A stretch of 64,000 bases of DNA from Prevotella sp. (GTDB lineage Bacteria; Bacteroidota; Bacteroidia; Bacteroidales; Bacteroidaceae), in assembly GCA_017412705.1 (NCBI GenBank), contig JAFPWS010000032.1, positions 1-64,000 on the forward strand. Direction: 5' to 3'. Positions within the stretch are counted from its first letter, which is position 1. Every line of letters starts with the position of its first letter. A program made the position numbers and the translations under genes. The notes beneath the pieces are model-generated. The model was not told the origin of the DNA. It searched no databases and saw only the letters and a program-made list of their open reading frames with translations. This document shows positions 1,654-58,083 of the stretch, piece by piece.

Positions 1654-3018
1654 ATGAAGAACATTGCATATTTCTTGACGAGTGGCCTGATGGTGATGGC
1701 ACTCGCCTCGTGTGAGAAGAACTTAGAAGTTGCAGGTGCTGCAGAAGGTAATAGCATGCTCAGCATCATCACCCGTGCAGCAGAGGGCGACGCAAAGGTC
1801 AGCTACCCTGTACTCATCTATGCCATGAACCCTGATGGCCAGTGTGTCAGGCGGCAGCAGATAAATTCCGCCGCCGACCAGCTGATGATGAAGCTGGAGC
1901 CCATGACCTATCAGATATATGCCGTGGGAGGTGCCACTGATGGCGACTACACGCTTCCGGGACAGGACGGTGCCACCGCAACATCAGAGATTACCCTGAA
2001 CGCTGAAGTCGAACACGACGACCTGATGACTGCGAATAATTCTGTCACTATCGCCGAAGACGAGGATGCCACCCTGACCCTCAGTATGTCAAGAAAAGTA
2101 ATGGAGATGGAGAGCATTGTCATCCAGAACGTCCCCACAACCATCAGCAAGGTCAGCATCACCCTGACACCCATCTACAGCGACCTGTTGCTGAACGGCA
2201 GCTACACCAGCACAACCTTCACGAAGACCATCGATCTGACAGAAGCAGCTGACGGTACGACATGGGAGCTTGCCAACCCCATCTACATGCTGCCCTCTAA
2301 CGGCAATGCCACCATCACCGTCAAGTTCGAGAAGAACAATACCGTCAACAGCTTTTCCTACACAGCCCCTGTCGCCTTGGAGGCCAACAAGCACATCCGC
2401 ATTCAGGGACAATACAACGGTAGTGGGCAGTTCAACCTCGTTGGCACCATCACAGGCGTCCAATGGGATGGCACCACCACCATCGAGTTCACCTTCAACG
2501 AAAACGGTTCCACCGGCAGCTTCGACGATTCCGGCAATGACAACCAAAACGACGACGGGATAGAAGAAGGCGCCGCACCGGCGGCTACAACTATCTACAA
2601 AGATTGCTACGTTTTCAGTACTACTGATGATGAAACAGGAGAATACAAGATTGTAAAACTCTTATACAATAACGAAGTTGACATTACTGGGACTGGCAAA
2701 ACACAAGAAGAAGTAATGACTGAAATCAATGCAGCGTTACCCACCTTTAGCATAAATGGTATTACAGGGTGGAAATTGCCTTCAGCAGAAGAAGTCGACA
2801 TCTTTAAATCATTGATTCCCAGCGCAAATTCAAATTTTGAGAATATAGACGGCGCTAAGAAGATATCAACTTCTAGTGAAGGCTATTACTATATGGATGA
2901 TGTTACTCTAAAAACTTTTTATAGGAACAGCACTTATACCCTTTTAGACCAACCTTTCACCTCTGGTCAGCACTTGCGTCCTGTAAAGACACTCAAGTTC
3001 AATAAGAACGCCCAGTAA
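1654..3018 (+). CDS. FimB/Mfa2-like fimbrial lipoprotein with a variable C-terminal domain
   Basis: 454 residues. The signal MKNIAYFLTSGLMVMALASC has its lipobox Cys at 20. Residues about 40-300 fit the FimB/Mfa2 fold: a short strand region (SYPVLIYAMNPDGQCV), a mid-region on threonine- and serine-rich beta strands, and NPIYMLPSNGNATITV followed by ANKHIRIQGQYN. Such proteins anchor or cap Bacteroidales fimbriae at the outer membrane. An Asn/Asp-rich linker (about 290-310) leads to a C-terminal domain (about 315-454) with ITGWKLPSAEEVDIF, which recalls the DUF1566/FISUMP type of lectin-like tip domain. The DNA for this last part (about 2590-3000) is clearly more AT-rich than the rest, so the domain may have been acquired. 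The family assignment is inferred from layout and is not certain. Confidence 0.6.
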   Translation: MKNIAYFLTSGLMVMALASCEKNLEVAGAAEGNSMLSIITRAAEGDAKVSYPVLIYAMNPDGQCVRRQQINSAADQLMMKLEPMTYQIYAVGGATDGDYTLPGQDGATATSEITLNAEVEHDDLMTANNSVTIAEDEDATLTLSMSRKVMEMESIVIQNVPTTISKVSITLTPIYSDLLLNGSYTSTTFTKTIDLTEAADGTTWELANPIYMLPSNGNATITVKFEKNNTVNSFSYTAPVALEANKHIRIQGQYNGSGQFNLVGTITGVQWDGTTTIEFTFNENGSTGSFDDSGNDNQNDDGIEEGAAPAATTIYKDCYVFSTTDDETGEYKIVKLLYNNEVDITGTGKTQEEVMTEINAALPTFSINGITGWKLPSAEEVDIFKSLIPSANSNFENIDGAKKISTSSEGYYYMDDVTLKTFYRNSTYTLLDQPFTSGQHLRPVKTLKFNKNAQ

Positions 3019-3208
3019 GGGAACTATGAGTTTCTCGGTAGGAAACTACCAGTTTCTCGGCATGTAACTACCAGTTTCTCGGTAGGAAACTATGAGATTG
3101 TCGGTAGGGAACTGACAGTCACTCGTAATACGAAGGGTGCTCACTCGTAATGTGAGTGCCCTTCAATCGTAATACGAAGGCCCTTCAATCGTAATACGAA
3201 GGGCCTTT
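3019..3208. repeat. 22-nt phased tandem array, locus 1
   Basis: Eight full units and one partial unit, each exactly 22 nt, start right after the stop codon at 3016-3018: 3019-3040, 3041-3062, 3063-3084, 3085-3106, 3107-3128, 3129-3150, 3151-3172, 3173-3194, then 3195 on. Units 1-4 end in TCGGTA or TCGGCA; units 5-8 end in TCGTAA. Many junctions form a hairpin with a 7-nt loop: AGTTTC-TCGGTAG-GAAACT, CTCAC-TCGTAAT-GTGAG. There are no unique spacers, so it is not a CRISPR array. Confidence 0.9.
3178..3207. terminator. Bidirectional hairpin terminator between convergent genes
   Basis: AAGGCCCTTC (3178-3187) pairs perfectly with GAAGGGCCTT (3198-3207) around a 10-nt loop. It lies between the 3' ends of the convergent genes at 1654 and 3269 and is built from the last units of the 22-nt array. 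T runs on either side are weak. Confidence 0.6.
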
Positions 3209-3268
3209 AGAAAATCAGGCCCCACGATGGTGAACGTGGAGCCTGTCTTAATATAGAGTTCTTGCAGA

Positions 3269-5488
3269 TTATTCAGCCAGCGGGTCGAACGTTCCGTTGG
3301 CACCGCCGTTGTTGTAGTCCTGCCAACCAATGGTCTGGGGCAGACCCTTGTTTGCGCTCTGTGCACCGCTGCCCAATCCAAGGAAGTAGTACTTCGGACG
3401 GAAGGTGATGTACTCCAGGTTGTGCTGTGAGTCGTAGCCGTCTCCGCGCTTGTAGCTGGTGACCAAGTTGTCGGTGTACCAAGTCTTCAAGGTTTCGAGC
3501 TGCGTGGTGAGGTCGTCCTGCGTGAAGTCAACACCAGCAGGACGCTCTACGCCGGCTTTCACCAGGGGGTCGCCGTCCCACAGGGTAGTTCCTACGCCAA
3601 ATTTGTCAGCCGTGCGGAACTCGACGCGCTCACGACGCTGGCCATTCCAGGGTGTGAAGCCCAGCCAAGTGCAGGTATTGCCACCCCAGCCCGTCAGTGT
3701 CCATGAAGCAGGCTGTCCGTCAACCTTCTCCTGACCACCGTCAAAGAGCATCCAACGGCGCATGTCGTCGAAGCGCTTGCCCTCGTAGGCGAACTCTATC
3801 TGGCGCTCGTACAGGATAGCCGACATACAGGTAGCCTGGTCGCTGGCAAGGTTAGACTGTAGGCCGTAGCTGTCCTCGGCCTTGTAGCCGGCACGTTCAC
3901 GAATCTGCTGGAGAATCTGAACAGCCTCACCCATCTGACCGGCACCACAGGCAGCCTCAGCCAGATTCAGGAGCACTTCGGTATAGCGTAGCTCGATGAG
4001 CGGAGCCTGCGAGAAGAAAGCGGTGTTGTAGGTAGCACCGTAGTTGTAGAGCGGCGAGCCGTTGACGTCGAGGTCGTCACTCTTCTTGCGAACATAGATA
4101 GCCTGCTTGCTGCCCAACAGGTTGTCAGCACCGTAGGAGTTGCCACTTTCCACGTTGCCGGCATCGTCCATGCTGGTGTACCAAACATAGTTCCACACCA
4201 CGTAGTTCTTTCCTGCATCGTACGACGGATTGTGGCTGTCGCGCTGCGTCGGGTCGCCACTGTAAGCCCAGCGGAAGCCGGGGAAGGCGAAGGTGCGGTA
4301 GAAGCGTGGGTCGCGATTCATGTAGGGAGCAGTCTCGTCGTAGAGGTACTTGCTGCGCTCCAACTTGGAATAGGTGTTGGCATAGGTCCTCGCGGTAGTG
4401 AGTGCGCCAAGGTTGGCTATCTTACCATCCTTCATGGGGAACAGGTCGACGAGTGCCAGTCCTGCACCCTTGCCGCTGCCACCGGTATTCTTCGGACGTA
4501 CGGCACCCTCCCAGGTATTGTTCTTCTGATTGTCCAGACCTTCGTCGCTCATGACGTTGTTGTGCAGGGCGACGAACACAGCCTCAGGGTTGGCATTGAC
4601 CACCAGGAACTGGCGGGCAAAGTCAGAGCCATTCACGTTGTTGCCTGATGTATAAAGACCATAGCCGCAGGCATTGATGACACTCAAGTCGGCTTTCATT
4701 TGTGTGTAGGCATTCTGCCAACGTGTTTGGTCGTTAGCGCGGTTGAACAAGGGGCTTGCCCACAGCAACAGCACACGACCCTTCAGCGCCAAAGCAGTAC
4801 CAGCGGTTACTCGACCATAGTCGGAACCTGACCACACCTTACCGGCCAGCATGGTAGCTGCACGGTCGAGATCAGCCAGAATGAACTCAATACAATCCTT
4901 AGTCGAAGAACGCGGAGTGAAAGAACTCTCCACTGGTTCGAGCACATCAGTGACGATGGGCACGCCGCCATACCACTTTACGAGGTTATAGTAGCACCAG
5001 GCACGGAAGAAGTAAACCTGACCTAACAGCAGCTGCTTGTCTTCATCGGAGATAGAGCCGCCTTGGATACCATTGATACAGTCGTTGATGTTGCGGATGC
5101 GTCCATAAACAGAGTTCTGGATATTGGCATTGGCACCGAGGAAGTAGTCGGGCACGGCATTGGTAGTACCCATGGAGGTCAGTTCAATCTCAGGGTTGAC
5201 AAAATCGCTGAAACCCGTATACTCCTCTGTCGACTTGGCTGCGATGTCAGCATTACCAATAGAAACAGAAAGGTAATTCTGACCAGTTGTCAAATCGGAA
5301 ACCTTTGGCAGACACCAGCTATAGATATCGTTGACACGGCCGTTGCAGCCACTGAGATAGTTGTATATGTCGGTAGTCGCATTGTCGTAGTTCTTTTTCT
5401 CCTCCAAGAACTTATCGCTACAAGCTGACAGGGCGAGAACAGACACGAGACCGAAACTGAAATATTTAATTGCTTTCATAACTTTCAT
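3269..5488 (-). CDS. SusD/RagB-family surface glycan-binding lipoprotein (CAZyme-less locus)
   Basis: 739 residues, long for SusD. The signal peptide has a lipobox (FSFGLVSVLALSAC, Cys23). The family pattern is clear: N-terminal DKFLEEKKNYDNATT, a TPR-like helical part (LLLGQVYFFRAWCYYNLVKWYGGVPIV), ALKGRVLLLWASPLF, and a C-terminal EVLLNLAEAACGAG plus YERQIEFAYEGKRFDDMRRW. SusD proteins cap the SusC porin and deliver oligosaccharides at the outer membrane. It lies 13 bp downstream of its SusC, surely in one operon. A second ATG in frame at 5479 gives MKAIKYF and is an equally good start. The substrate cannot be read from the sequence. Confidence 0.93.
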   Translation of the reverse strand: MKVMKAIKYFSFGLVSVLALSACSDKFLEEKKNYDNATTDIYNYLSGCNGRVNDIYSWCLPKVSDLTTGQNYLSVSIGNADIAAKSTEEYTGFSDFVNPEIELTSMGTTNAVPDYFLGANANIQNSVYGRIRNINDCINGIQGGSISDEDKQLLLGQVYFFRAWCYYNLVKWYGGVPIVTDVLEPVESSFTPRSSTKDCIEFILADLDRAATMLAGKVWSGSDYGRVTAGTALALKGRVLLLWASPLFNRANDQTRWQNAYTQMKADLSVINACGYGLYTSGNNVNGSDFARQFLVVNANPEAVFVALHNNVMSDEGLDNQKNNTWEGAVRPKNTGGSGKGAGLALVDLFPMKDGKIANLGALTTARTYANTYSKLERSKYLYDETAPYMNRDPRFYRTFAFPGFRWAYSGDPTQRDSHNPSYDAGKNYVVWNYVWYTSMDDAGNVESGNSYGADNLLGSKQAIYVRKKSDDLDVNGSPLYNYGATYNTAFFSQAPLIELRYTEVLLNLAEAACGAGQMGEAVQILQQIRERAGYKAEDSYGLQSNLASDQATCMSAILYERQIEFAYEGKRFDDMRRWMLFDGGQEKVDGQPASWTLTGWGGNTCTWLGFTPWNGQRRERVEFRTADKFGVGTTLWDGDPLVKAGVERPAGVDFTQDDLTTQLETLKTWYTDNLVTSYKRGDGYDSQHNLEYITFRPKYYFLGLGSGAQSANKGLPQTIGWQDYNNGGANGTFDPLAE

Positions 5489-11467: not shown

Positions 11468-13327
11468 TTATTCTATTGTGCAATAGATATTGTCCTTATC
11501 CTTACGAGTGGGGTACAGCTTGATGGTAGTACCCACTACGGTGAGGTTGTCACCGTTGGCAACGAGGTCGGCGACATCGCCTCCCAGGTTGATGCTCCAC
11601 GAGTTGTTGGTGGTGAACTTCCAACCGTTGGCTGTCACGCCGGCACCGCTGATTTCGAAGCAGTAGTCGGTAGCGTTCCATGTCATCTGCTGGGCATCGT
11701 CGGCAGCATTCCATCCGTTGAAGTCGCCCACAAGGTTCATGTTCTGGATGCGTACGGCATTGATGCTCATGGTGGCCATATCGAGTGTGACATAATAGAC
11801 GCCCTCACCAGCAGTAGCCTTGAAGTTGCCACCGCCGTCGCCGAAGTCGCCAGTGATACCACCTGTCATGTGACCGGTATTAATCTCGGTACCCCAATCG
11901 CCTGGAACCTTCTGGAACTTGAACTCATTGCCCCATCCGTTCGGGTCAGCGCAATAGAGGAAGCCCGTATAGATACCGCTCTCATCGGTAAGAGCCAGCT
12001 TCTGCTCGGCATTTGTCCAACCGTCGGTAGCTCCGATGAAGTAGATGTACGGGTCGAAGTTGAGCGGAGTAATCTCGTAGGTCATATCCAGCGCATTGAT
12101 GGTAAAGCGATAGAACTTGGCGGAACCGTCCACATGGAACGAGTGGTCACCATCGAGGTTATAGCGACGATCGAATGAACCACTCAGGTCCTCGCTTGCA
12201 CCAGTAGTGCCAAAGAGCTGCGACCAGTCGTTGGCATCGATGGCATCGAGTGCCTCGGCATCACCGAACGCGAACCACAATTCACTGCCACCAGTCAAAA
12301 CGTAGCTGAAGACAGGATCCTCAAAGACGTCCTTATCGCTGTGCGAGAACTTCTGGCTCTTGTCACTGCTCCAGCTGCCATTACCACCTACCAGATAGTA
12401 GGACTCGGCAATGTTGACGGCCTCTACAGTAAAGGTCTGCTCCATCATGTCGATGGTGACGCGAATCTTCTTGGCACCCTTGACACAGAATGAGTTGTCA
12501 CCGCCAAGCTCGGAGCGACGGGCAATCTTACCTTCCGTTGCCTCGTTGTCGCCGCCTACGATGCCGTACAGCTGACTCCAGTCGCCAGCAGCAATGGCAT
12601 CACAAGCCTGGTCGTCACCGATAGCAAACCACGTATCGCCATCTGCTGCGTCGAAAGTTACCGTGAAGATAGGATCCACATAGACATCCTCATCGCTGTG
12701 CTGGAACTTAATGGTACGCTCAATGGCAGAAGCCTGCCAGTCGTTAGGACCACCCACGATATAATAAGCTGGTGCTATGGTCAGCTTATTCAGCGGAGTA
12801 AACGTAATACTATTTACCGCGAAGTAATTCTCACCAGGCTTACCGATGATAGCTTCTGCTTCACCACCTGTTACCGTGTAGAGGATAATACGCGAATAGA
12901 GTGTCACAGTAGCGGGATTCTTGGTGATACCCTCGAAATATGCTGTCTGCAGATTACCAGCGTCAATAGTGATAAGGCCATCCTCGGCAATGGTGTTAGC
13001 TGCCAAAACGACCGAGTTGCCAAAATCAGCTTCGCGTGCAATTTCCACCTCTGCCTTCAGGATTGTGTTAACAGGCATGGCACCCTCAATGACTGAAACA
13101 GTTCCAAAAGTAATAGGATTGCCTGTGCCTTCATTCTCATTGATATAGTCTTCCAGGTTGATAGCCGTGGGAGCACCGGCAGTGCTGACACTGACATCGC
13201 TTGCTGCAAGAGGACTCTCTGCGGTGTAGGACTGAGGTCCTACCGTCGCATCGAAGTTCTCAGTACATGCAACAAAACCCATGCTCAAAAGAGCGGTCAT
13301 GAATATACCTAACTTTTTCATATTCAT
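11468..13327 (-). CDS. susF: SusF-like outer-membrane starch-binding lipoprotein with several binding modules
   Basis: About 619 residues from the chosen start. MNMKKLGIFMTALLSMGFVAC gives a clean lipoprotein signal (Cys21); an ATG at 13348 would add seven residues and sit 3 bp from the previous stop, and 13321 is also possible. An N-terminal SusE/SusF Ig-like domain is followed by four related modules opening with YYIVGGPNDW, YYLVGGNGSW, YFIGATDGW and NLVGDFNGW, each a likely starch-binding unit with an exposed Trp. The protein ends in TIKLYPTRKDKDNIYCTIE. It is the last gene of the starch susCDEF operon, just before a strong terminator. SusE and SusF hold starch at the cell surface and are not enzymes. 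Confidence 0.85.
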   Translation of the reverse strand: MNMKKLGIFMTALLSMGFVACTENFDATVGPQSYTAESPLAASDVSVSTAGAPTAINLEDYINENEGTGNPITFGTVSVIEGAMPVNTILKAEVEIAREADFGNSVVLAANTIAEDGLITIDAGNLQTAYFEGITKNPATVTLYSRIILYTVTGGEAEAIIGKPGENYFAVNSITFTPLNKLTIAPAYYIVGGPNDWQASAIERTIKFQHSDEDVYVDPIFTVTFDAADGDTWFAIGDDQACDAIAAGDWSQLYGIVGGDNEATEGKIARRSELGGDNSFCVKGAKKIRVTIDMMEQTFTVEAVNIAESYYLVGGNGSWSSDKSQKFSHSDKDVFEDPVFSYVLTGGSELWFAFGDAEALDAIDANDWSQLFGTTGASEDLSGSFDRRYNLDGDHSFHVDGSAKFYRFTINALDMTYEITPLNFDPYIYFIGATDGWTNAEQKLALTDESGIYTGFLYCADPNGWGNEFKFQKVPGDWGTEINTGHMTGGITGDFGDGGGNFKATAGEGVYYVTLDMATMSINAVRIQNMNLVGDFNGWNAADDAQQMTWNATDYCFEISGAGVTANGWKFTTNNSWSINLGGDVADLVANGDNLTVVGTTIKLYPTRKDKDNIYCTIE

Positions 13328-19297: not shown

Positions 19298-20323
19298 ATG
19301 AAAGAAAAGACTCCATTGACGATGAAGGACATAGCCCGCGAGTTTGGTATCTCGGTGGCTACGGTATCCCGTGCGCTGAAGGATTCACCCCGCATTTCGG
19401 CAGAGCGTCGCGCTGCCATCCAGCAGTATGCCCGCGAGCATAACTTCACCCCCAACATGATTGCCGAGTCGCTGCGTTTCTCACGCGTTCAGCCTATGAA
19501 GGTCATCGGCGTCATCATCCCTGAGTTCACCCACTTCTATTTCTCGTCGGTATTGGCAGGCATTGAGGAAGAGGCCTCTGCCCGCGGCTACCGCATTATG
19601 GTGGCCCAGAGCAATGAGCGTTACGAGCGCGAGGTGCGCATCTGCCAGTCGTTCTACGAGAACAAGGTTTGTGGCATCATCGTGTCGCAGGCCAAGGACA
19701 CACTGAAGTACGACCACTTCCAGCGACTGATGGACGACGGAGTGCCCCTTGTCTTCTACGATAGAATATGTACGGGCGTGAATGCCAGTCGTGTGGTGGT
19801 CGACGACTATATGGGTGCCTTCAATGCTGTGAGCCACCTTGTCGAGACAGGCTGCAAGCGCATTGCCTTCTATGGTTCTGCCTTTACCCTGGAGATTTCC
19901 AAGAATCGCTTCAACGGCTATAAGGACGCCCTGCTAAAGCATGGCCTGTCCTATGATGAGTCGCTGACCCGAATCTGCGACAACCGCGCTGACGCAGAGG
20001 TCATTACCCCCGAGCTGTTACAAGGCGACAACGTCCCCGATGCCTTCTTTGCCGTCAACGACGACACCGCCATCGGCATCCTCTATACCGCCAAGCGCAT
20101 GGGCTTCAAGGTACCACAAGACATCTCCATCTGTGGCTTCACCAACGGACAGCGTGCCGTAGCCTGCGACCCCATGCTGACCACCGTTGAACAGCGTGGT
20201 GTCAAGGTGGGCGAGGAGGCTGCTGACATCTTGATAAGCCACGTGGAAGGCTCCATTCCCTTGGATAAGGCAGAGCGCCGAATCGTGCGCACACGACTGA
20301 TTATCAGAGGTACTACCAGGTAA
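19298..20323 (+). CDS. LacI-family transcriptional regulator of the starch locus
   Basis: 341 residues. N-terminal LacI helix-turn-helix (TMKDIAREFGISVATVSRAL, about 8-27) with the hinge region RFSRVQPMKVIGVIIPEF, then a periplasmic-binding-protein-like effector domain: FYFSSVLAGIEEEA, VVVDDYMGAFNAVSHLVETG, VPDAFFAVNDDTAIGIL, DISICGFTNGQRAVACDPMLTTV. It should bind the 22-bp palindrome at 19171-19192 and respond to a maltose-type sugar; both are inferences from position. It heads the plus-strand unit with transporter, GH77 and GH97 genes. LacI control of starch genes, in place of a SusR-type membrane activator, differs from the textbook B. thetaiotaomicron arrangement. Confidence 0.93.
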   Translation: MKEKTPLTMKDIAREFGISVATVSRALKDSPRISAERRAAIQQYAREHNFTPNMIAESLRFSRVQPMKVIGVIIPEFTHFYFSSVLAGIEEEASARGYRIMVAQSNERYEREVRICQSFYENKVCGIIVSQAKDTLKYDHFQRLMDDGVPLVFYDRICTGVNASRVVVDDYMGAFNAVSHLVETGCKRIAFYGSAFTLEISKNRFNGYKDALLKHGLSYDESLTRICDNRADAEVITPELLQGDNVPDAFFAVNDDTAIGILYTAKRMGFKVPQDISICGFTNGQRAVACDPMLTTVEQRGVKVGEEAADILISHVEGSIPLDKAERRIVRTRLIIRGTTR

Positions 20324-20352
20324 TTAAGCATTAAGAGTTAAGAATTAAAGAT
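20324..20352. repeat. Heptad-phased A/T-rich spacer
   Basis: The gap between the regulator and the transporter is TTAAGCA, TTAAGAG, TTAAGAA, TTAAAGA and then TATG, that is, 7-nt units running up to the start codon. Similar spacers precede the genes at 39015, 40767 and 46613. Confidence 0.6.
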
Positions 20353-21725: not shown

Positions 21726-26407
<4,682 letters not shown>

Positions 26408-26418
26408 CAAGGGTTCTT

Positions 26419-26506
26419 GGCGACGCGGAGTTTCTCGGTAGGAAACTACCAGTTACTCGGCATGTAACTACCAGTTTCTCGGTAGGAAACTCTTGCTTTG
26501 TCGGTA
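26419..26506. repeat. 22-nt phased tandem array, locus 2
   Basis: Four units of exactly 22 nt (26419-26440, 26441-26462, 26463-26484, 26485-26506) and a partial fifth begin 11 nt after the GH97 stop. Unit 26463-26484 is identical to locus 1 unit 3063-3084. Junction hairpins with 7-nt loops: AGTTTC-TCGGTAG-GAAACT, AGTTAC-TCGGCAT-GTAACT, AGTTTC-TCGGTAG-GAAACT, then TTTG-TCGGTAC-CAAA. Confidence 0.9.
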
Positions 26507-26637
26507 CCAAACTTCAGATCGGATTTGTACTGCAAAGAAATTATATTCTTTTGCTGAGGCGCTACAAGAGTGCGATATCCTCACTCCTCCACGTCGATGC
26601 AGAACTTTTCGGTGATAATCTACATTTTTCACTTTTA
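26507..26637. other. Intergenic stretch without recognised feature
   Basis: After the 22-nt array and before the large inverted repeat I see no gene of convincing length, no TAnnTTTG box and no hairpin. It is part of the 497-bp gap between GH97 and pnp. Confidence 0.5.
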
Positions 26638-26775
26638 CATGACGGATGACGGATATGACACATGTTTTCCTGATTTCTCGCGCGTGTACGCGGGAAGTGT
26701 TGACACTGCCAAGAGTTCCTGCGTACACGCGCGAGGGATTCCTACAATTATCCGTCATATCTGTCATGTGTCATG
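26638..26775. repeat. Large composite inverted repeat with a 19/20-bp core stem
   Basis: The core arms CTCGCGCGTGTACGCGGGAA (26677-26696) and TTCCTGCGTACACGCGCGAG (26716-26735) pair with one mismatch around a 19-nt loop. The match extends outwards: CATGAC and GATATGAC on the left (26638-26663) pair with GTCATATC and GTCATG on the right (26751-26775), with a poorly matched middle. Total arms are about 60 nt. The spelling is unlike neighbouring DNA. Confidence 0.85.
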
Positions 26776-26904: not shown

Positions 26905-29253
26905 ATGAACGTAATTACGAAAAGCATTCAGTTGCCTGATGGAAGAACCATCACAATTGAAACCGGGAAAGTGGCAAAGCAGGCCGACGGCAGTGTGATG
27001 CTCCGCATGAACAACACCGTACTGCTGGCTACTGTTTGTGCCGCAAAAGATGCAGTTCCCGGAACCGATTTCATGCCTCTGCAGGTGGACTACAGAGAGC
27101 AGTATGCCGCAGCAGGACGTTTTCCCGGCGGTTTCACAAAACGTGAGGGTAAGGCCTCGGACAATGAGATTCTGACCAGTCGCCTGGTAGACCGTGTGCT
27201 CCGTCCGCTGTTCCCCTCGAACTATCACGCAGAAGTATTTGTCAACGTGATGCTGTTCAGCGCCGACGGTGTTGACCAGCCCGATGCTTTGGCAGGTTTT
27301 GCCGCCTCTGCTGCGCTGGCATGTTCAGATATTCCCTTCGAGTGTCCTATCTCTGAGGTTCGCGTGGCCCGTGTGAACGGCGAGTATGTGATTGACCCCA
27401 CCTTCGAGCAGATGAAGGAGGCCGACATGGACATCATGGTTGGCGCCTCTGCCGAGAACATCATGATGGTGGAGGGCGAGATGAAGGAGGTGTCTGAGCA
27501 AGACCTGCTGGGTGCCCTGAAGGCTGCCATGGCCGCCATCAAGCCGATGTGTGAGTTGCAGACCGAGCTGAGCAAGGAGCTGGGCAAGGATGTGAAGCGC
27601 GAGTACGACCACGAGGTGAACGACGAGGCGCTGCGCGAGCAGATGAACAAGGAGCTGTACCAGCCCGCCTATAACGTCACAAAGCAGGCCCTGGAGAAGC
27701 ACGCCCGTGCCGAGGCCTTCGAGAAGATTCTTTCCGACTTCAAGGAGAAGTTCTTCGCCGAGCACACAGAGATTACCGAGACTTCTGAGATTTCCAAGGA
27801 CGAATACGAGGCTCTGATGGACCGTTACTACCACGACGTCGAGCGCGACGCCATGCGTCGTTGCATCCTGGACGAGGGTATCCGTCTGGACGGTCGTAAG
27901 ACGGACGAGATTCGCCCCATCTGGTGCGAGGTCAGTCCGCTGCCCATGCCTCACGGAAGCAGCATCTTCACCCGTGGCGAGACACAGTCGCTGACGACGG
28001 TCACACTGGGTACCAAGCTGGACGAGAAGCTGGTGGACGACGTACTGGACAAGAGCTACATGCGCTTCCTGCTGCACTATAACTTCCCCCCGTTCTGCAC
28101 AGGCGAGGCCAAGGCCCAGCGTGGCGTAGGCCGTCGTGAGATTGGTCACGGACACCTGGCATGGCGCGGTCTGAAGGACATGATTCCTGACGACTTCCCC
28201 TACACCGTGCGTGTGGTGAGCCAGATTCTGGAGTCGAACGGTTCTTCGTCGATGGCTACCGTCTGCGCCGGTACGCTGGCCCTGATGGACGCCGGTGTTC
28301 CCATGAAGAAGCCCGTCAGCGGTATTGCCATGGGTCTGATTAAGAACCCCGGCGAGGACAAGTATGCCGTGCTGAGCGATATCCTCGGTGACGAGGACCA
28401 CCTGGGCGACATGGACTTCAAGACCACCGGTACGAAGGATGGTCTGACTGCCACCCAGATGGATATCAAGTGCGACGGTCTGTCGTTCGACATTCTGGAG
28501 AAGGCGCTGATGCAGGCTAAGGCTGGCCGTGAGCATATCCTCAATTGCATCACCGACACCATTGCCGAGCCCCGTCCCGAGCTCAAGCCCCATGTACCCC
28601 GCATTGAGGCCTTCGAGATTCCGAAGGAGTTCATCGGTGCTGTCATTGGCCCTGGTGGCAAGATTATCCAGCAGATGCAGGAGGATACCGGTGCTACCAT
28701 CTCTATCGACGAGGAAGACGGTGTCGGCAAGATTCAGGTCAGCGGTCCTGACAAGGAGTCCATTGACGCTGCCATTGCCAAGATCAAGGCCATCGTGGCC
28801 ATCCCCGAGGTGGGCGAGGTCTACGAGGGTACCGTCCGCAGCATCATGCCTTATGGCTGCTTCGTAGAGTTCATGCCTGGCAAGGACGGCCTGCTCCACA
28901 TCTCGGAGATTGACTGGAAGCGCCTGGAGACCGTTGAGGAGGCTGGCATCAAGGAGGGTGACAAGATTACCGTCAAGCTGCTGGAGATTGACCCGAAGAC
29001 CGGCAAGTTCAAGCTCTCTCACCGTGTGCTGGTAGAGAAGCCCGAGGGCTATCAGGAGCGTCCTGCCCGTCGCGAGCGCGGTGAGCGCCCCGACCGTGGC
29101 GAGCGTCGTCCTCGTCCTGACCGTCAGGACCGTGGTGAGCGTCGTCCTCGTCCTGAGCGCGGCGAGCGTCGTGAGCGCACCGAGGAGTATCATGACCCCG
29201 AGAACCATGAACCCAAGGGTTTCACGGACGAGCTGGACAAGATGGACTTCTAA
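26905..29253 (+). CDS. pnp: Polyribonucleotide nucleotidyltransferase (PNPase)
   Basis: 782 residues. A phosphorolytic 3'-5' exoribonuclease of RNA turnover, cytoplasmic, a trimer by family knowledge. Domains in order: first RNase PH core ([16 protein letters not shown], with [13 protein letters not shown]), helical linker, second RNase PH core ([31 protein letters not shown]-type ISGIAMGLI with [15 protein letters not shown]), KH domain ([17 protein letters not shown], about 570-630) and S1 domain ([17 protein letters not shown], about 640-715). A basic C-terminal tail (about 716-770) repeats [15 protein letters not shown]-type stretches before an acidic end. It is a single gene with its own promoter and terminator. 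Confidence 0.97.
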
Positions 29254-38979: not shown

Positions 38980-39014
38980 TTAAGTTAAGAATTAAGAGTT
39001 AAGAATTAAGAGTT
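38980..39014. repeat. Heptad-phased spacer before the fructan susD
   Basis: Units TTAAGAA, TTAAGAG, TTAAGAA and TTAAGAG run in tandem up to TT-ATG. It fills the whole gap between the SusC stop and the SusD start. Confidence 0.75.
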
Positions 39015-40730
39015 ATGAAAAAGATTAATCTATATATTTCCGTCTTACTGCTTTCTGTCTTTGCAGTATCATGTAGTGTTGACGATGTGAAGCCGCAAGG
39101 AACGCTCGATGAAGAAACAGCGTTCTCTAGCCCTGATAAGCTTGTCACCGCAGCCTATGCTAAACTTGGTGACGACTGGTATTCCTATCCCTTCAACTTG
39201 TGGCCATACGGTGACATGAGTGCCGACGACTGCCTGAAGGGAGGCTCTGGTGAAAACGATACGGGTTATCATCCCATGGAGATCTTCTCTACTCTCCAGC
39301 CTGACCGTGGCGAGTTTGATGAGCTCTGGTATCAACTGTACAGTGCCATCTCTCGCGTCAATCGTGCCATTGAGGCTTTGGATAATGTTGAAGAGACTGA
39401 TGCCATCAGACAGCTGAAAGCTGAGGCACGTTTCCTCCGTGGCCATTTCTACTTCAAACTGCAGCAGATGTGGTACGAGGTACCCTTCATCACCGAGGGT
39501 ATGGACAATGCCACCATCGAGGCTACGCCCCAGAGCTCGCACGACCAGATTATGCAGCAGATTATCGACGACTTCCAGTATGCCTACGAGAACCTGCCGA
39601 CAGCTAATCCTGGCACAACAGGTCGCGCCCACAAGGTGGCTGCTGCTGCCTACCTGGCCAAGTGCTATCTGAACTGGGCCTATGGCGACGGCTATGAGGC
39701 TACCACGGGCTACAGCCATGTGGACAAGGCCAAGATACAGAAGGTGCTGGACTACACCTTGGTGGTAAAGAACTCTCCCTACGACTATCTCGACACCTAC
39801 GGACACATCTTCCTGCAGGACTATGCTAACTCTGTAGAGAGCATCTTCGCCGTGCAGCACTCGAACAAGGCTGACGATGGTACTCAATATGGTCGTGCCA
39901 ACTGGTCGAACATGCTGAATGGTGTTTGGGGCATCTGGTCGTGCGGATGGGACTTCCACAAGCCCTCACAGAACCTGGTCAATGCCTTCAAGACCCGCAA
40001 CGGTCTGCCTATGGACAACTTCGACGAGGACCACAATGCCATCGTCGTCAACGGAGCCGACTCTAAGTACAAGTACGACCCCCGTCTGTTCCACACCGTT
40101 GGTATGCCTACCTATCCTTATAAGTACGAGGAGCAATACACTCTTACCAAGGCCAACAGCCGTACCCCCAACACCTATGGCTACTACTGCTCTATGAAGG
40201 AGATTCCTCAGCGCTCAAAGGGTGAATACTACGACAACCCCTGGCAGGCATTTGGCCAGAACGACTACGTGCTGCGCTATACCGACATCATGCTGATGCG
40301 CGCCGAGGCACTCATCGAGAGCGGCGACTTCAATGGCGAGGCCCTGCAGATTATCAACGAGATTCGCAGTCGTGCCAAGAAGGACATCAGCGCTACCTCG
40401 CTCATCAGCTATGCCCGCAACCAGTGCGACATCAGCCTGTATGGCTCGTTCGCCTCAAAGGATGACGCCCGCAAGGCCCTGCGTTGGGAGCGTCGCGTGG
40501 AGCTCGCCATGGAAGGACACCGTTTCTTCGACCTGCGTCGCTGGGGTCTGCTCTCCTCTACCCTCAACAAGTACTTCGAGACAGAGGTTACTGACGAGTA
40601 CGACGGACAGACCTATGGCCTGTACTACAAGGATGCCTTCTTCACTGCAGGCAAGAACGAGTACTTCCCCATCGCCTCTAACCAGATGAACTACGTTCAG
40701 GGACTCTATCACCAGAACAAAGGCTACTAA
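39015..40730 (+). CDS. SusD-family lipoprotein of the fructan locus
   Basis: 571 residues. Signal MKKINLYISVLLLSVFAVSC (Cys20). SusD landmarks: VKPQGTLDEETAFSSPDKLVT, AEARFLRGHFYFKLQQMWYEVPFI, AHKVAAAAYLAKCYLNWAYG, YVLRYTDIMLMRAEALIESG and RRVELAMEGHRFFDLRRWG, ending YVQGLYHQNKGY. Outer-membrane partner of the SusC just upstream, binding fructans or fructooligosaccharides at the cell surface. A heptad-repeat spacer stands directly before its start, and the same type follows before the next gene. Confidence 0.94.
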   Translation: MKKINLYISVLLLSVFAVSCSVDDVKPQGTLDEETAFSSPDKLVTAAYAKLGDDWYSYPFNLWPYGDMSADDCLKGGSGENDTGYHPMEIFSTLQPDRGEFDELWYQLYSAISRVNRAIEALDNVEETDAIRQLKAEARFLRGHFYFKLQQMWYEVPFITEGMDNATIEATPQSSHDQIMQQIIDDFQYAYENLPTANPGTTGRAHKVAAAAYLAKCYLNWAYGDGYEATTGYSHVDKAKIQKVLDYTLVVKNSPYDYLDTYGHIFLQDYANSVESIFAVQHSNKADDGTQYGRANWSNMLNGVWGIWSCGWDFHKPSQNLVNAFKTRNGLPMDNFDEDHNAIVVNGADSKYKYDPRLFHTVGMPTYPYKYEEQYTLTKANSRTPNTYGYYCSMKEIPQRSKGEYYDNPWQAFGQNDYVLRYTDIMLMRAEALIESGDFNGEALQIINEIRSRAKKDISATSLISYARNQCDISLYGSFASKDDARKALRWERRVELAMEGHRFFDLRRWGLLSSTLNKYFETEVTDEYDGQTYGLYYKDAFFTAGKNEYFPIASNQMNYVQGLYHQNKGY

Positions 40731-40766
40731 GTAAAGTTTAAAGTTTAAAGATTAAAGTTTAAAGTT
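40731..40766. repeat. Heptad-phased spacer before the glycan-binding protein
   Basis: AAGTTTA, AAGTTTA, AAGATTA and AAGTTTA in tandem, ending AAGTT-ATG. Same 7-nt period as at 38980 but a different unit; both end AGTTATG. Confidence 0.75.
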
Positions 40767-42314
40767 ATGAAGACATTATATAATAAAATAGGTGCGGCAC
40801 TGTTAGGTATGCTCCTCTTCACCTCCTGTCAAGACAGAGATCTCCCCGGCTCTGGTGCCATGCAGATTGCCAGTCCCGATGCAACACAGATAACGGGTGC
40901 GCTCAGTGGCGACAACAATTACGACTACACGCTGACGTGGCCTGCAAGCAATAATGGCGCTGTGATGAATGTCGCAGTGTACAAGAATGGTACGCAGATG
41001 CAGGCCCTCACCCCTTGCACGGGCAACTCCTTCACACTGAAGAACCTGGAGACCAACCAGCTCTATGAGTTCCTCTTCAAGTACGCCTCTGGCGATGCCG
41101 TCTCCAATGGTGTAATGACCTCCTACACCCGTGCCGGTGCCACGACACCTGCTGAGGTCAAGATGGAACAGGTCGACATCTCCGACGACGTGCACAACCT
41201 GCAGATTTCCTGGACAGCAAGTGCCGATGCTACCTCATACATTCTGAAAGTGGTGAAGAACAGCACTCAGGAAATAGTCAACACCACTGTTAATGGTACG
41301 ACTTACCTGCTGGAGAACGTTCAGATGAAAGACCGTTTCGAGGCTACCGTCATTGCTCAGAACAACGAAGGCAAGGCTCTGCCCGTCGAGGCCTCTGCCA
41401 AGATTGGCGGCAAGATTCCTGGCTTCCTGTCAGAATATGCTACACCTGAAGAGCTCATCGCTAATGGTGACGACGACGAAGCCTCTGCATGGCTCTGGTT
41501 CCAGGCCAACTACCCCAAGGGCGAGTACATCTACTTTGGCAACATCAGCACGGTATCGGACATCGAGGACTACCGTATGCTCTTCTGGCTCCGCGACATC
41601 GAGACAGGCAACGTCGACGACATCTGGAACTTCTCTGACGTGGCCAAGAATGCTGCTCCCTGCATCGAACAGTATGTGAAGAATGGTGGCAACCTGCTGC
41701 TGTGGTCGCATGCCGTACCTTACATCGGCACTATCAACCGTCTGTCTACCTCGTTGCTGCGTGGTGTGAGTAATGCCTTCGGATGTGGTGTCGGTGGTCC
41801 AAACCCCGACGTATGGAAGATGGGTGTTTGCCTGAACACAGGCTCGTTCTCTAAGGACCTCAGCACCCATGCCATCTATGCTGGCATCCCGACTGAGAAG
41901 CTCAATGACACCTGCTTCAAAGGCATTGCCTTCAAGGGCGCAGGCTGGACGGAGGACCACAACTGCCTCTTCTTCGACATCCCCGCCAAGCTGACCGGTC
42001 TCGACAACGATACCGAGGAGTGCTACAACGTGCTCACCAACGACTACGGCATCTACCCCCTCGGCACCTGGGACAGCCAGGTAGCATGGGTCAGCCAGCT
42101 CAACGTCTGGGAGGCCAAGGGAGCCGACAAGGCCCCTGACGGATTCCAGAAAGGTTGCGGCACCGTGCTCTGCATCGGTAATGGCGGTTGCGAGTTCTCG
42201 ATGAAGAACACCGACGGCACGCCCGACAAGAGTGCCACGCCCAAGAACAACTCTTGTCAGGACAACATCCTGAAGCTGGCAAAGAACAGCGTCGAGTATC
42301 TGATGTCTATCTAA
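40767..42314 (+). CDS. Surface glycan-binding lipoprotein of the fructan locus (DUF4960-like)
   Basis: 515 residues. Signal MKTLYNKIGAALLGMLLFTSC (Cys21). Two fibronectin type III-like modules follow (about 40-118: YDYTLTWPASNNGAVMNVAVY; about 128-212: LQISWTASADATSYILKVVKN). The C-terminal part (about 225-515) has NLLLWSHAVPYIGTINRLSTS, VGGPNPDVWKMGVCLN and QKGCGTVLCIGNGGCEFSM, with no glycosidase signature. The order SusC, SusD, this gene matches the surface fructan-binding protein of Bacteroides fructan loci, and the C-terminal part fits DUF4960; the second point is from memory. A weak terminator follows. Confidence 0.78.
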   Translation: MKTLYNKIGAALLGMLLFTSCQDRDLPGSGAMQIASPDATQITGALSGDNNYDYTLTWPASNNGAVMNVAVYKNGTQMQALTPCTGNSFTLKNLETNQLYEFLFKYASGDAVSNGVMTSYTRAGATTPAEVKMEQVDISDDVHNLQISWTASADATSYILKVVKNSTQEIVNTTVNGTTYLLENVQMKDRFEATVIAQNNEGKALPVEASAKIGGKIPGFLSEYATPEELIANGDDDEASAWLWFQANYPKGEYIYFGNISTVSDIEDYRMLFWLRDIETGNVDDIWNFSDVAKNAAPCIEQYVKNGGNLLLWSHAVPYIGTINRLSTSLLRGVSNAFGCGVGGPNPDVWKMGVCLNTGSFSKDLSTHAIYAGIPTEKLNDTCFKGIAFKGAGWTEDHNCLFFDIPAKLTGLDNDTEECYNVLTNDYGIYPLGTWDSQVAWVSQLNVWEAKGADKAPDGFQKGCGTVLCIGNGGCEFSMKNTDGTPDKSATPKNNSCQDNILKLAKNSVEYLMSI

Positions 42315-42439: not shown

Positions 42440-42549
42440 CTGCAAGATATTTTGCCTATAGGCATAAGTGTTTTCACCTATAGACGCAAGATATTTCACC
42501 TGTAGGCGAAAGGTTTTCCAGACGGCACTTTGACCCTGTCCAGACGGCT
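42440..42549. repeat. 22-nt phased tandem array, locus 3
   Basis: Five degenerate units of exactly 22 nt: 42440-42461, 42462-42483, 42484-42505, 42506-42527, 42528-42549. The first three end in CCTATAG, CCTATAG and CCTGTAG; the last two end in CCAGACGGCA and CCAGACGGCT. The unit sequence is unrelated to loci 1 and 2 but the period is identical. TGCCTATAGGCA within it is a perfect 12-bp palindrome. Confidence 0.8.
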
Positions 42550-44869: not shown

Positions 44870-46561
44870 ATGAAGAAACTCGTATTGACAATGATGACCT
44901 TGATGCTGACACTCGTAGGAGCCTCTGCTCAGGAGAAGCCACAGGTGTTAGGCAAGAGCCACGCCATGCAACGCGTGGAAGTAAAGAACAAGTACCTGCT
45001 GTTGCCCGTACAGGAGCGCGAAGATATGGCCAAGATCCGCGTGCTGTCCAACAACCAGGAGGTGCAGAAGCTCAACGTACGCCTGGCAGTCGACAAGGTT
45101 GACTACTGGGTACCCATGGATCTCTCTCAGCTCGCCACACCCAACGCCCACTTGCTGCTCGACATCACCTTCGAGGGCGACCGCCGCTTTACTGGCGCTA
45201 TGAAGGACTTCCTGTGCTGGCGCGAGATGAAGCAGAGCGACACCTTCGACATTCAGAACCGTGAGAAGTATCGTCCCCAGTACCACCATACCCCCGTCTA
45301 TGGCTGGATGAACGACCCCAACGGCATGTTCTATAAGGATGGCGTCTATCATCTGTACTACCAATGGAACCCCTACGGCTCTCAGTGGGAGAACATGACG
45401 TGGGGACACTCGACCTCGCGCGACCTTATTCATTGGGAGGCGCAGCCCACAGCCATTGCCCCCGATGCTCTGGGAGCCATCTTCAGTGGCTCGTGCGTGG
45501 TCGATAAGAAGAATAATCAGGTCGTGGCGTTCTACACCTCTGCTGGCGAGAAGACACAGGTGCAGTCCATGGCCATCTCAAAGGATAACGGACAGACCTT
45601 CCAGAAGTACGACGGCAACCCCGTACTGGTAAGCACCGAGGAAGATTTCCGCGACCCCAAGGCCTTCTGGAACCCCGAGATACAGAAGTGGAACCTCATT
45701 CTGGCTGTTGGTCAGGAGATGCGCATCTACACCTCCGACAACCTGAAGGACTGGCAGTACGAGAGCTCTTTCGGCAAGGAGTTGGGTTGCCACGATGGCG
45801 TGTGGGAGTGTCCCGACCTCATGAAGCTGCAGGTGCGTGGCACCGACAAGCAGAAGTGGATGCTCATCTGCAACATCAACCCCGGAGGACCCTTCGGCGG
45901 CTCGGCCACCCAGTATTTCGTGGGTGAGTTCGACGGACGTCACTTCTCGTGCGAGCATAAGGACACGCGCTGGATGGATTATGGCAAGGACCACTATGCC
46001 ACCGTCACCTTCGACAATGCCCCCGACGGACGCAAGATAGCACTGGCTTGGATGTCCAACTGGCAGTACGCCAACCAGGTGCCCACCAAGCAGTTCCGTT
46101 CTGCCAACAGCGTCCCCCGCGACCTCGACCTCTTCGAGTATGAAGGCCAGACCTACTGTGGCGTCACTCCTTCGCGCGAGTTACTCTCCATCCGTGGCCA
46201 GGTGGTGAAGAAGCTGCCCAAGACCTGCGAGATTGTAGTCGACGTGAAAGGCACTACCGACATCACCCTGTCTAACGCCCTTGGCGAGCGTGTCGTCATG
46301 CGCTACGACGCCCAGCAAAAGACCTTCTCCATGGACCGCACCCGCAGCTATGCCAGCTTCAGCGAGGCCTTCCCCTGCGTCACTACGGCACCCGTCTATG
46401 GCGACATCAAGCAGTTACGCATCTTCGTCGACAACAGCAGCATCGAGGCCTTCGACGCTGAAGGTCGTCTGTCTATGACCAACCTCATCTTTCCCCAGGA
46501 GCCCTACAACAACATCAAGGTCACTGGTGGCAAGGCTACCATCTATGAAATTAAGAAGTAA
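44870..46561 (+). CDS. GH32 beta-fructosidase (exo-fructanase/invertase type), exported
   Basis: 563 residues. Signal peptide MKKLVLTMMTLMLTLVGASAQ without a lipobox, so probably periplasmic. GH32 five-blade propeller motifs: GWMNDPNGMFY (nucleophile Asp149), YYQWNPYGSQW, FSGSCVVD, EEDFRDPKAFW (transition-state Asp about 262) and DGVWECPDLMKL (acid/base Glu about 313), then AWMSNWQYANQVP. The C-terminal beta-sandwich ends in LRIFVDNSSIEAFDAEGR. About 120 residues before the first motif form an extra N-terminal beta domain. It releases fructose from fructans or sucrose. It starts the operon with the permease and fructokinase. Confidence 0.95.
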   Translation: MKKLVLTMMTLMLTLVGASAQEKPQVLGKSHAMQRVEVKNKYLLLPVQEREDMAKIRVLSNNQEVQKLNVRLAVDKVDYWVPMDLSQLATPNAHLLLDITFEGDRRFTGAMKDFLCWREMKQSDTFDIQNREKYRPQYHHTPVYGWMNDPNGMFYKDGVYHLYYQWNPYGSQWENMTWGHSTSRDLIHWEAQPTAIAPDALGAIFSGSCVVDKKNNQVVAFYTSAGEKTQVQSMAISKDNGQTFQKYDGNPVLVSTEEDFRDPKAFWNPEIQKWNLILAVGQEMRIYTSDNLKDWQYESSFGKELGCHDGVWECPDLMKLQVRGTDKQKWMLICNINPGGPFGGSATQYFVGEFDGRHFSCEHKDTRWMDYGKDHYATVTFDNAPDGRKIALAWMSNWQYANQVPTKQFRSANSVPRDLDLFEYEGQTYCGVTPSRELLSIRGQVVKKLPKTCEIVVDVKGTTDITLSNALGERVVMRYDAQQKTFSMDRTRSYASFSEAFPCVTTAPVYGDIKQLRIFVDNSSIEAFDAEGRLSMTNLIFPQEPYNNIKVTGGKATIYEIKK

Positions 46562-46612
46562 GAGTTAAGAATTATTGGTTTCACCAAGTTAAGAATTAAG
46601 AATTATATATTT
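46562..46612. repeat. A/T-rich spacer with heptad-like TTAAGAA units before the permease
   Basis: GAGTTAAGAATTA, an interruption, then AAGTTAAGAATTAAGAATT. It belongs to the same spacer type as 20324 and 38980 but is less regular. Confidence 0.5.
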
Positions 46613-57991: not shown

Positions 57992-58057
57992 GGGCGCGAC
58001 TTGGCAGCAAGCCGGGCGCGACACGGCAGAGGACGGGGCGCGACACGACAGCGGACG
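57992..58057. repeat. 22-nt phased tandem array, locus 4
   Basis: Three units of exactly 22 nt: 57992-58013, 58014-58035, 58036-58057, each opening GGGCGCGAC, with a partial fourth (GGGCAAAAC) and a weak unit before. The array ends 27 nt from the stop of the ABC gene at 58084. The sequence is GC-rich and unlike the other three arrays; only the period is shared. Confidence 0.8.
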
Positions 58058-58083
58058 GGGCAAAACCCCCTTCAGGAACAGCG

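What the first reader, a model, noticed from the sequence alone, without database searches (positions are those of the whole stretch)
3019..3208. Array of degenerate units with an exact 22-nt period whose junctions form small hairpins
Eight consecutive units are each exactly 22 nt although their sequence drifts from a TCGGTA type to a TCGTAA type. The period is kept while the bases are not, so the length itself seems to matter (about two helical turns or a fixed RNA module). At many junctions the end of one unit pairs with the start of the next around a 7-nt loop (TCGGTAG, TCGGCAT or TCGTAAT), and the arms change together: AGTTTC/GAAACT in one place, CTCAC/GTGAG in another. The array starts at the stop codon and its last units form the terminator hairpin. 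Four arrays with the same period and mostly different unit sequences occur in 64 kb. I know no described element of this kind, but I could not search.
Basis: partly seen in the sequence, partly recalled or inferred. Interest (0 to 1): 0.78.

Follow-up and report, generated by a model that had tools for sequence, protein, structure and literature searches.

The report
Gene-end repeats spaced two helix turns
The DNA between genes in this Prevotella-like bacterium and in several relatives carries many short repeat arrays whose unit length stays near two turns of the double helix (21-23, most often 22 bases) although the repeated sequences differ, which hints at an undescribed process or protein that works in steps of about two helix turns at gene ends.

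Summary
Eight TCG(G/T) landmarks lie exactly 22 nt apart from 3035 to 3189, across a change of unit type; 20 shuffles of 137 intergenic gaps gave no such segment at any period. It is part of a wider pattern: in 464 kb of this genome and 400 kb of a congener, non-coding tandem repeats peak at 22 nt. Of 91 sequence clusters at periods 10-60, 44 have a period of 21-23 and 19 one of 40-45. One family has 22 in 106 of 118 hits over 15 genomes; another, in another species, has 21 in 90 of 90. So the constant is about two helical turns, not 22 itself. Arrays favour gene ends and are rare in divergent gaps. The RNA fold is strong, but strand preference is absent overall, arm covariation is weak and mixed, and no + strand terminator was found. 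Best reading: DNA-level, BIME-like gene-end arrays with a two-turn pitch; the cause of the pitch is inferred. Closest in print: P. gingivalis BrickBuilt (23 nt) and REP/BIME.

The parts
1654..3018 (+). Upstream gene (454 aa, lipoprotein-like by its N-terminus, recalled, not searched); the array begins at its stop codon
   Evidence: ORF list, sequence
3019..3208 (.). Composite array: units with TCGGTAG/TCGGCAT cores, then TCGTAAT cores, one 22-nt frame
   Evidence: TRF; eight landmarks with seven intervals of 22; RNA fold z -7.56
3216..3245 (-). Terminator-like hairpin with T-rich tail, outside the array, pointing out of the convergent minus-strand gene
3269..5488 (-). Convergent gene (739 aa, SusD-like from memory, not searched)
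   Evidence: ORF list
26429..26513 (.). Second array, TCGGTAG/TCGGCAT type, 3' of gene 24188-26407 and upstream of gene 26905-29253 (PNPase by my reading of its sequence, not searched)
42455..42518 (+). Third array, TTTTGCCTATAGGC type, 3' of gene 40767-42314; cores at 42455, 42477, 42499
57992..58061 (.). Fourth array, GGGCGCGACACGGCAG type, 3' of the minus-strand gene 58084-59904

Best explanation
These are gene-end tandem-repeat arrays at DNA level, a minisatellite-like system of several Prevotella lineages, in which the step is about two helical turns (21, 22 or 23 bp by family). Shown: tight pitch within families, many unlike unit families at about the same pitch, gene-end bias, arrays in the same gap in different species, in-frame mosaics of unlike units, and degenerate 22-nt phasing that remains in two samples of congeners after clear arrays are masked. 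Inferred: arrays are born and extended by tandem duplication in two-turn steps, and they persist where same-face repeats 3' of genes, above all between convergent genes, are bound by a DNA protein (a nucleoid protein or gyrase, as at BIMEs of enterobacteria), giving a transcription or supercoiling boundary. The hairpins are then mostly a by-product of dyad-rich units and not the main selected feature.
For: Period spectra: 22 dominates non-coding repeats in own 464 kb and G016 400 kb; of 91 clusters 44 lie at 21-23 and 19 at 40-45, against 4 at 15-20 and 7 at 26-39. Tight pitch: 106 of 118 at 22 (in genomes picked by a 22-spaced pattern), 90 of 90 at 21. After masking, lag 22 keeps z 8.4 in G016 (with 44, 66, 88) and 8.8 in the pooled G003/G004/G008/G010 sample. 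Position, with one array counted twice removed: of 91 arrays with both neighbours, 28 lie in convergent and 11 in divergent gaps, where base shares predict about 16 and 26; of 52 in tandem gaps 36 lie nearer the 3' end, 15 nearer the next start, 1 tie. Same gap in different species: 3' of one gene in L182, L198, L201, L206, L207, L208 and before another in L193, L198, L207, L209. In-frame mosaic in L191. Five of 74 gaps 3' of PNPase carry unlike arrays with best periods 21, 21, 22, 44, 44; a sixth has 15. No coding counterpart; none in 50 kb of E. coli.
Against: No binding protein is identified. Unit sequences differ so much between families that one sequence-specific protein is unlikely. The lattice is not seen in the small G008, G009 and G010 samples, and after masking it is gone in own (z 1.5) and in the 80 named loci (z -1.1). 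Gene-end bias could merely be avoidance of promoters. The TTTTGCC family is oriented with the upstream gene (16 of 18) and both families tested on one strand show a small covariation excess, which speaks for RNA. A 17-nt deletion in L209 breaks the frame. 21 and 42 are also multiples of 3 and 7, so some arrays there may be unrecognised coding or heptamer repeats.
Confidence: 0.43

Rival explanations
1. Neutral minisatellites: short anchors repeated every 21-23 nt (KTTTG, CCCT, TATAGGC, TCGG) cause slippage by exactly one unit, so the frame perpetuates itself while the rest drifts; gene ends are simply where junk is tolerated.
For: Sharp within-family pitch; local expansion in frame, e.g. four to five type-C units in L191 where other copies have one or two (by eye); covariation only weak; depletion in divergent gaps; decayed lattice after masking in some congeners.
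Against: Does not explain why unlike families share 21-23 and 40-45 and why 15-20 and 26-39 are nearly empty, nor arrays kept in the same gap in species whose neighbouring genes are about 67-86% identical.
Confidence: 0.3
2. RNA module: the arrays are transcribed as 3' UTR hairpin chains that form mRNA 3' ends or block exonucleases, with 22 nt per hairpin.
For: RNA fold of 3019-3208 z -7.56; 61 of 110 arrays have a mean z of both strands below -1.65 (at least one z was undefined); TTTTGCC family oriented with the upstream gene in 16 of 18; small covariation excess on one strand: TTTTGCC double changes 9 against 5.1, 11 of 500, TCGGTA 8 against 4.5, 14 of 500.
Against: Tandem dyads fold well whatever their function, and related units can exceed such shuffles without structure; sense and antisense equal, 44 to 40; G-U 32, A-C 27; broken pairs outnumber swapped ones in the TCGGTA family; TCGGTA arrays read by eye 6 with and 6 against transcription, 8 of 20 undetermined; clear dyads in only 22 of 80 arrays at p<=0.05; no + strand terminator.
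Confidence: 0.17
3. Non-autonomous mobile elements (MITE or REP/RAYT type) that carry the array as cargo and spread it.
For: Own-genome copies share flanks beyond the array (L185-L193); tens of loci per family; BrickBuilt is a MITE with a 23-nt array (PMC4596501); one Y1_Tnp gene in the own genome.
Against: No terminal inverted repeats were noticed in the flanks read by eye (not searched systematically); G003 (99% complete) has a strong lattice but no Y1_Tnp match; no array found in the 3.4 kb around the own Y1_Tnp gene; some positions are shared by distinct species. Other transposase families were not searched.
Confidence: 0.1

Closest known systems
BrickBuilt 23-nt minisatellite MITE of Porphyromonas gingivalis (PMC4596501: abstract, sections 5 and 8 and part 1 of section 7 read)
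   Same: Same order Bacteroidales; intergenic, dispersed (19 loci), imperfect tandem units of about two turns without spacers, predicted stem-loops; the paper also mentions 22- and 41-nt direct repeats in strain W83
   Different: One family with leader, tail and IS5-like terminal repeats and 1 to 22.8 units; here many families, mostly short arrays, no terminal repeats noticed, and the shared feature is the pitch
REP elements and BIMEs with RAYT transposases (PMC2817692, PMC3733652: abstract start and search passages only)
   Same: Dispersed, extragenic, palindromic, in regularly spaced clusters in BIMEs; passages report IHF, gyrase and Pol I binding and help in Rho-dependent termination; CGTC-tagged repeats are reported in Bacteroidetes among five phyla
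   Different: REPs are 20-40 bp palindromes tagged GTAG or CGTC at one end, in alternating orientation in BIMEs; here head-to-tail units with a two-turn pitch, no conserved tag in the families looked at, and no Y1_Tnp match in G003
Plasmid iterons of about 22 bp (recalled; PMC4980987 seen only in a search listing)
   Same: Tandem direct repeats at about two helical turns, so that bound proteins share a face (recalled)
   Different: Iterons sit at origins beside rep genes (recalled); the window array has no match in 72,556 plasmid records, and chromosomal arrays lie at many gene ends

Membership tests
REP/BIME | 20-40 bp palindromic unit | tested here: inconclusive
   Dyads enriched but not general: mean z 1.2, 22 of 80 arrays at p<=0.05
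REP/BIME | GTAG or CGTC tag conserved at one end (from PMC3733652) | tested here: not met
   TCGGTAG alternates with TCGGCAT and TCGTAAT in one array; TTTTGCC and GTTACGAAAT families show none conserved in the listed hits, by eye
REP/BIME | Cognate RAYT (Y1_Tnp) gene in the genome | tested here: not met
   Present once in own, in 7 of 10 genomes searched, absent from G003 where the lattice is strong
REP/BIME | Extragenic location | tested here: met
   Period-22 segments own: 15 non-coding, 2 coding; gene-end bias
REP/BIME | Binding of gyrase, IHF or Pol I | not testable with these tools
   needs ChIP or binding assays
BrickBuilt-type MITE | Terminal inverted repeats in leader and tail | tested here: inconclusive
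   Flanks of 20 and 10 loci read by eye: shared flanks but no terminal inverted repeat seen; not searched systematically
BrickBuilt-type MITE | Imperfect intergenic tandem units of about two turns without spacer | tested here: met
Rfam RNA family | Match at the gathering score | tested here: not met
   None for window 2900-3400, L191, L185, L193; two weak miRNA hits far below gathering scores
Plasmid iteron | Match to known plasmid repeats | tested here: not met
   window array only: no plasmid or phage record
Plasmid iteron | Location beside a rep gene at an origin | not tested
   no search for rep genes was run

The most novel reading that the evidence does not exclude
Prevotella lineages possess an undescribed DNA-level system (a duplicating enzyme or a filament-forming DNA-binding protein) that counts two helical turns, with a family- or species-set step of 21, 22 or 23 bp; it writes or maintains same-face arrays of arbitrary sequence at gene ends, so that in some species much of the intergenic DNA is laid out on a degenerate 22-bp lattice.
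Probability: 0.25. Interest if true: 0.88.

Novelty: new variant of a known kind. Interest (0 to 1): 0.62.

Why it matters
Dispersed bacterial repeats are usually defined by sequence. Here the conserved quantity is a length, about two helical turns, kept over unit families without recognisable similarity, and still visible as lags of 22, 44, 66 and 88 in one congener after clear arrays are masked. If the pitch is set by an enzyme or a protein, intergenic DNA of these bacteria would carry a readable imprint of it, and it becomes testable why gene ends in compact genomes collect repeats. If it is purely mutational, the arrays still give a natural record of a tandem-duplication step.

Tried and rejected
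Plasmid, phage and viral origin: no match of the window array and no exact pattern hit in viral contigs. Known RNA family: none at the gathering score. RAYT/REP as general cause: rejected because G003 lacks Y1_Tnp. Length-only dyad phasing between dissimilar neighbours: dyads 22 apart with unlike sequence are not clearly enriched (own 5, G016 6, named 16, close to neighbouring distances), so the 22 peak comes mostly from similar units. RNA strand signal by G-U against A-C: 32 to 27 in 82 arrays with an orientation and at least four stem columns (L039 was counted again as L181, one A-C). Another unit type (L035) had no second copy in the own genome.

Covariation tests: the first runs on the TTTTGCC and TCGGTA families took both strands, and the TCGTAA run (17 distinct units) used a badly placed structure. 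One-strand redos: TTTTGCC weak excess; TCGGTA weak excess. In my draft I had called covariation absent in the TCGGTA family; the redo changed that, so I raised the RNA rival from 0.15 to 0.17 and lowered the best explanation from 0.45 to 0.43.

Rows dropped or doubled: one search had 102 arrays, 10 at locus edges dropped; one array (L015 = L030) was counted twice and the report uses 91 of 101. In one search, of 23 loci, 1 duplicate and 4 divergent were dropped, leaving 18 that include shared gaps and are not independent. In one search, 8 of 20 loci were undetermined. In one search at least one z was undefined, so the mean sense z was not obtained. In one search clusters are single-linkage at 73% identity: one holds 25 arrays and the TCGGTA type is split over more than one cluster, so 91 is not a count of proven independent origins. 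G012 stretches (318-340 bases) were left out of counts. A strain-level test of copy number and indels was not possible: one genome per species is held.

Full report
What is there. The protein of gene 26905-29253 (PNPase by my reading) has its listed relatives in records titled Prevotella, Prevotellaceae, Xylanibacter or uncultured Bacteroidales (one only 'uncultured bacterium'), many named after ruminants or their stomachs. Between the stop codon of a plus-strand gene (1654-3018) and a convergent minus-strand gene (3269-5488) sits a 190-nt array. Its eight TCGG/TCGT landmarks are exactly 22 nt apart, and the frame runs through the change from TCGGTAG/TCGGCAT to TCGTAAT cores. TRF finds four period-22 arrays in the 64 kb; the first two share a unit type.

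Is it more than chance? A segment scan of 464 kb of this genome (window plus 20 stretches) found 15 non-coding segments at period 22, 7 at 44, 3 at period 8, and no more than 2 at any other period from 8 to 60. In 400 kb of the congener G016 it found 8 at 22 and no more than 2 at any other period, although G016 has no match to the query at E 0.001. At a threshold of 16, coding included, own has 19 at 22 against 0 at 20, 3 at 21, 0 at 23 and 3 at 24; G016 has 11 against 0, 2, 0 and 2. Shuffling 137 own gaps 20 times gave none at any period. Coding DNA shows a lag-22 excess of at most about 1.5 standard deviations, and a 50-kb E. coli control shows no array (only 3.7 kb of gaps, so weak).

How wide is it? 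Stretches of own and six congeners (G003, G004, G008, G009, G010, G016), of ten genomes from other families of the order, and 80 named loci were scanned. Clustering 209 arrays at 73% identity (the highest value in 300 random comparisons was 71%) gave 91 clusters: 15 at 21, 23 at 22, 6 at 23, 3 at 24, 2 at 25; 4 at 15-20; 7 at 26-39; 19 at 40-45; 7 below 15 and 5 above 45. So the constant is about two helical turns and its double. Heptamer repeats (periods 7, 14, 28) are a separate class; some of the 21 and 42 arrays could belong to it or be unrecognised coding. Five-base words recur at lag 22 in own (z 3.4), G016 (7.7), G003 (10.4, with 21 and 23 at 4.5 and 4.4), G004 (4.7) and the named loci (3.4, but 21 at 7.1), not in G008 (-0.8), G009 (-1.0) or G010 (0.7), and not clearly in the other families (highest 2.4 in G025 and 2.3 in G026). 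After masking detected arrays, lag 22 remains in G016 (z 8.4, with 44, 66, 88) and in the pooled G003/G004/G008/G010 sample (8.8), but not in own (1.5), the named loci (-1.1) or the four other-family genomes tested (1.0).

How strict is the pitch? A second family, TTTTGCCTATAGGCGCAAG, gave 16 matching places in the own genome, 11 separate arrays, nine of them with 4 units, one with 3 and one with 4 plus 2 of another type. It occurs in 15 of 299 genomes of the genus, own included (that pattern fixed the pitch at 22, so families at another pitch would be missed). Searching two TATAGGC cores with any gap of 8-24 in those 15 genomes gave 118 hits in 13 of them, strands and overlaps counted apart; 106 have a period of 22 and 12 another, of which most look unrelated and one (21) lies in an array; the reversed control pattern gave 6. 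In the genome of L094 (G315) a different family gave 90 hits with gaps of 4-30 allowed, all at 21. The pitch is thus fixed within a family but is not universally 22.

Mosaics. Around the TTTTGCC arrays the 22-nt frame seems to continue through unlike units: L191 holds about 13 consecutive units of three types when cut at 22 (frame judged by eye). In L091 two unlike arrays follow each other (12456-12560 and 12565-12636), with dyad centres 22 apart across the junction. In L209 a 17-nt deletion breaks the frame. At the gap 3' of PNPase, 6 of 74 gaps examined have an array, with best periods 22, 21, 21, 44, 44 and 15 and six unlike units.

Place and age. Of 101 arrays at 21-23 or 40-45 (one double count removed), 10 lay at locus edges; of the other 91, 52 are in tandem, 28 in convergent and 11 in divergent gaps, where intergenic base totals are 138, 45 and 72 kb. 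In tandem gaps 36 lie nearer the upstream gene's 3' end, 15 nearer the next start, 1 is a tie. Arrays recur in the same gap in different species: 3' of the gene that ends before the array in L182, also in L198, L201, L206, L207 and L208 (that gene about 68-74% identical to own), and before the gene that follows the array in L193, also in L198, L207 and L209 (about 72-85%). In L198 and L207 both genes flank one array, while in the own genome each gene has its own array on a different contig. L199 matches L193 only over the array and its flank, so it may be a dispersed copy.

RNA or DNA? The window array folds well (z -7.56), and dyads are enriched (22 of 80 arrays at p<=0.05). But sense and antisense fold equally over 84 oriented arrays (44 lower, 40 higher), G-U and A-C mismatches are 32 and 27, and no plus-strand terminator is found. 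Covariation is weak and mixed: nothing for TCGGTA on both strands, a small excess on one strand (double changes 8 against 4.5, 14 of 500 shuffles, with broken pairs far commoner than swapped ones at the two inner pairs), and a small excess for TTTTGCC (9 against 5.1, 11 of 500). Related units can exceed such shuffles without structure. For RNA speaks the TTTTGCC family: 16 of 18 usable loci are oriented with the upstream gene. TCGGTA arrays read by eye 6 with and 6 against, 8 of 20 undetermined.

Mechanism. I favour a DNA-level array with a two-turn pitch at gene ends that works like a BIME, bound on one face and acting as a boundary, with births by tandem duplication. Pitch, position and recurrence in the same gaps are shown; the binding protein and the duplication step are inferred. 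The main rival is a neutral minisatellite with anchors that make the frame self-perpetuating; the clustering of unlike families at 21-23 and 40-45 is what it explains least well.

Comparison with print. BrickBuilt of P. gingivalis is the nearest described element (PMC4596501; abstract, sections 5 and 8 and part 1 of section 7 read). Of PMC2817692 and PMC3733652 I saw passages; the latter reports CGTC-tagged repeats in Bacteroidetes among five phyla. REP/BIME membership fails on tag and transposase. Library searches for Prevotella intergenic or tandem repeats, 22-bp periodicity and helical-turn repeats listed no description of this (listings only, at most 20 shown of up to 338 papers, two searches returning none, and passages of PMC5771137); that library lacks most subscription papers.

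Noticed in passing
window 20322-20348, 38983-39019, 40732-40766, 46549-46605: Heptamer tandem repeats (AATTAAG, TTAAGAA, TAAAGTT) stand directly before or at start codons of several genes; the same heptamer class (periods 7, 14, 28) is common in relatives.
   Followed up: no
window 26677-26735: Inverted repeat with 29-nt arms, 86% complementary, 1 nt apart, between the second array and gene 26905-29253.
   Followed up: partly
L003, L004, L011: Three of 16 own-genome loci of the first repeat search that were scanned have minus-strand tRNA genes (Val, Gln, Val and Leu), the nearest about 70-75 nt from the array.
   Followed up: partly
L180:1411-2280: Single Y1_Tnp protein (289 aa) in the own genome with no repeat array found in the 3.4 kb around it.
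   Followed up: partly
L193, L199, L209 upstream of the arrays: An 11-nt triplicate (GTGCTACTRTA-like) precedes the 22-nt arrays, a half-length repeat, seen by eye.
   Followed up: no
L182 and L193 (own) against L198 and L207: Two genes that flank one array in G307 and G312 are apart in the own genome, each with its own array of the same family.
   Followed up: no
named loci L063-L142: Unlike dyads 33 nt apart are over-represented (29 against 9 and 13 at 32 and 34), perhaps the conserved leader of the PNPase gene.
   Followed up: no
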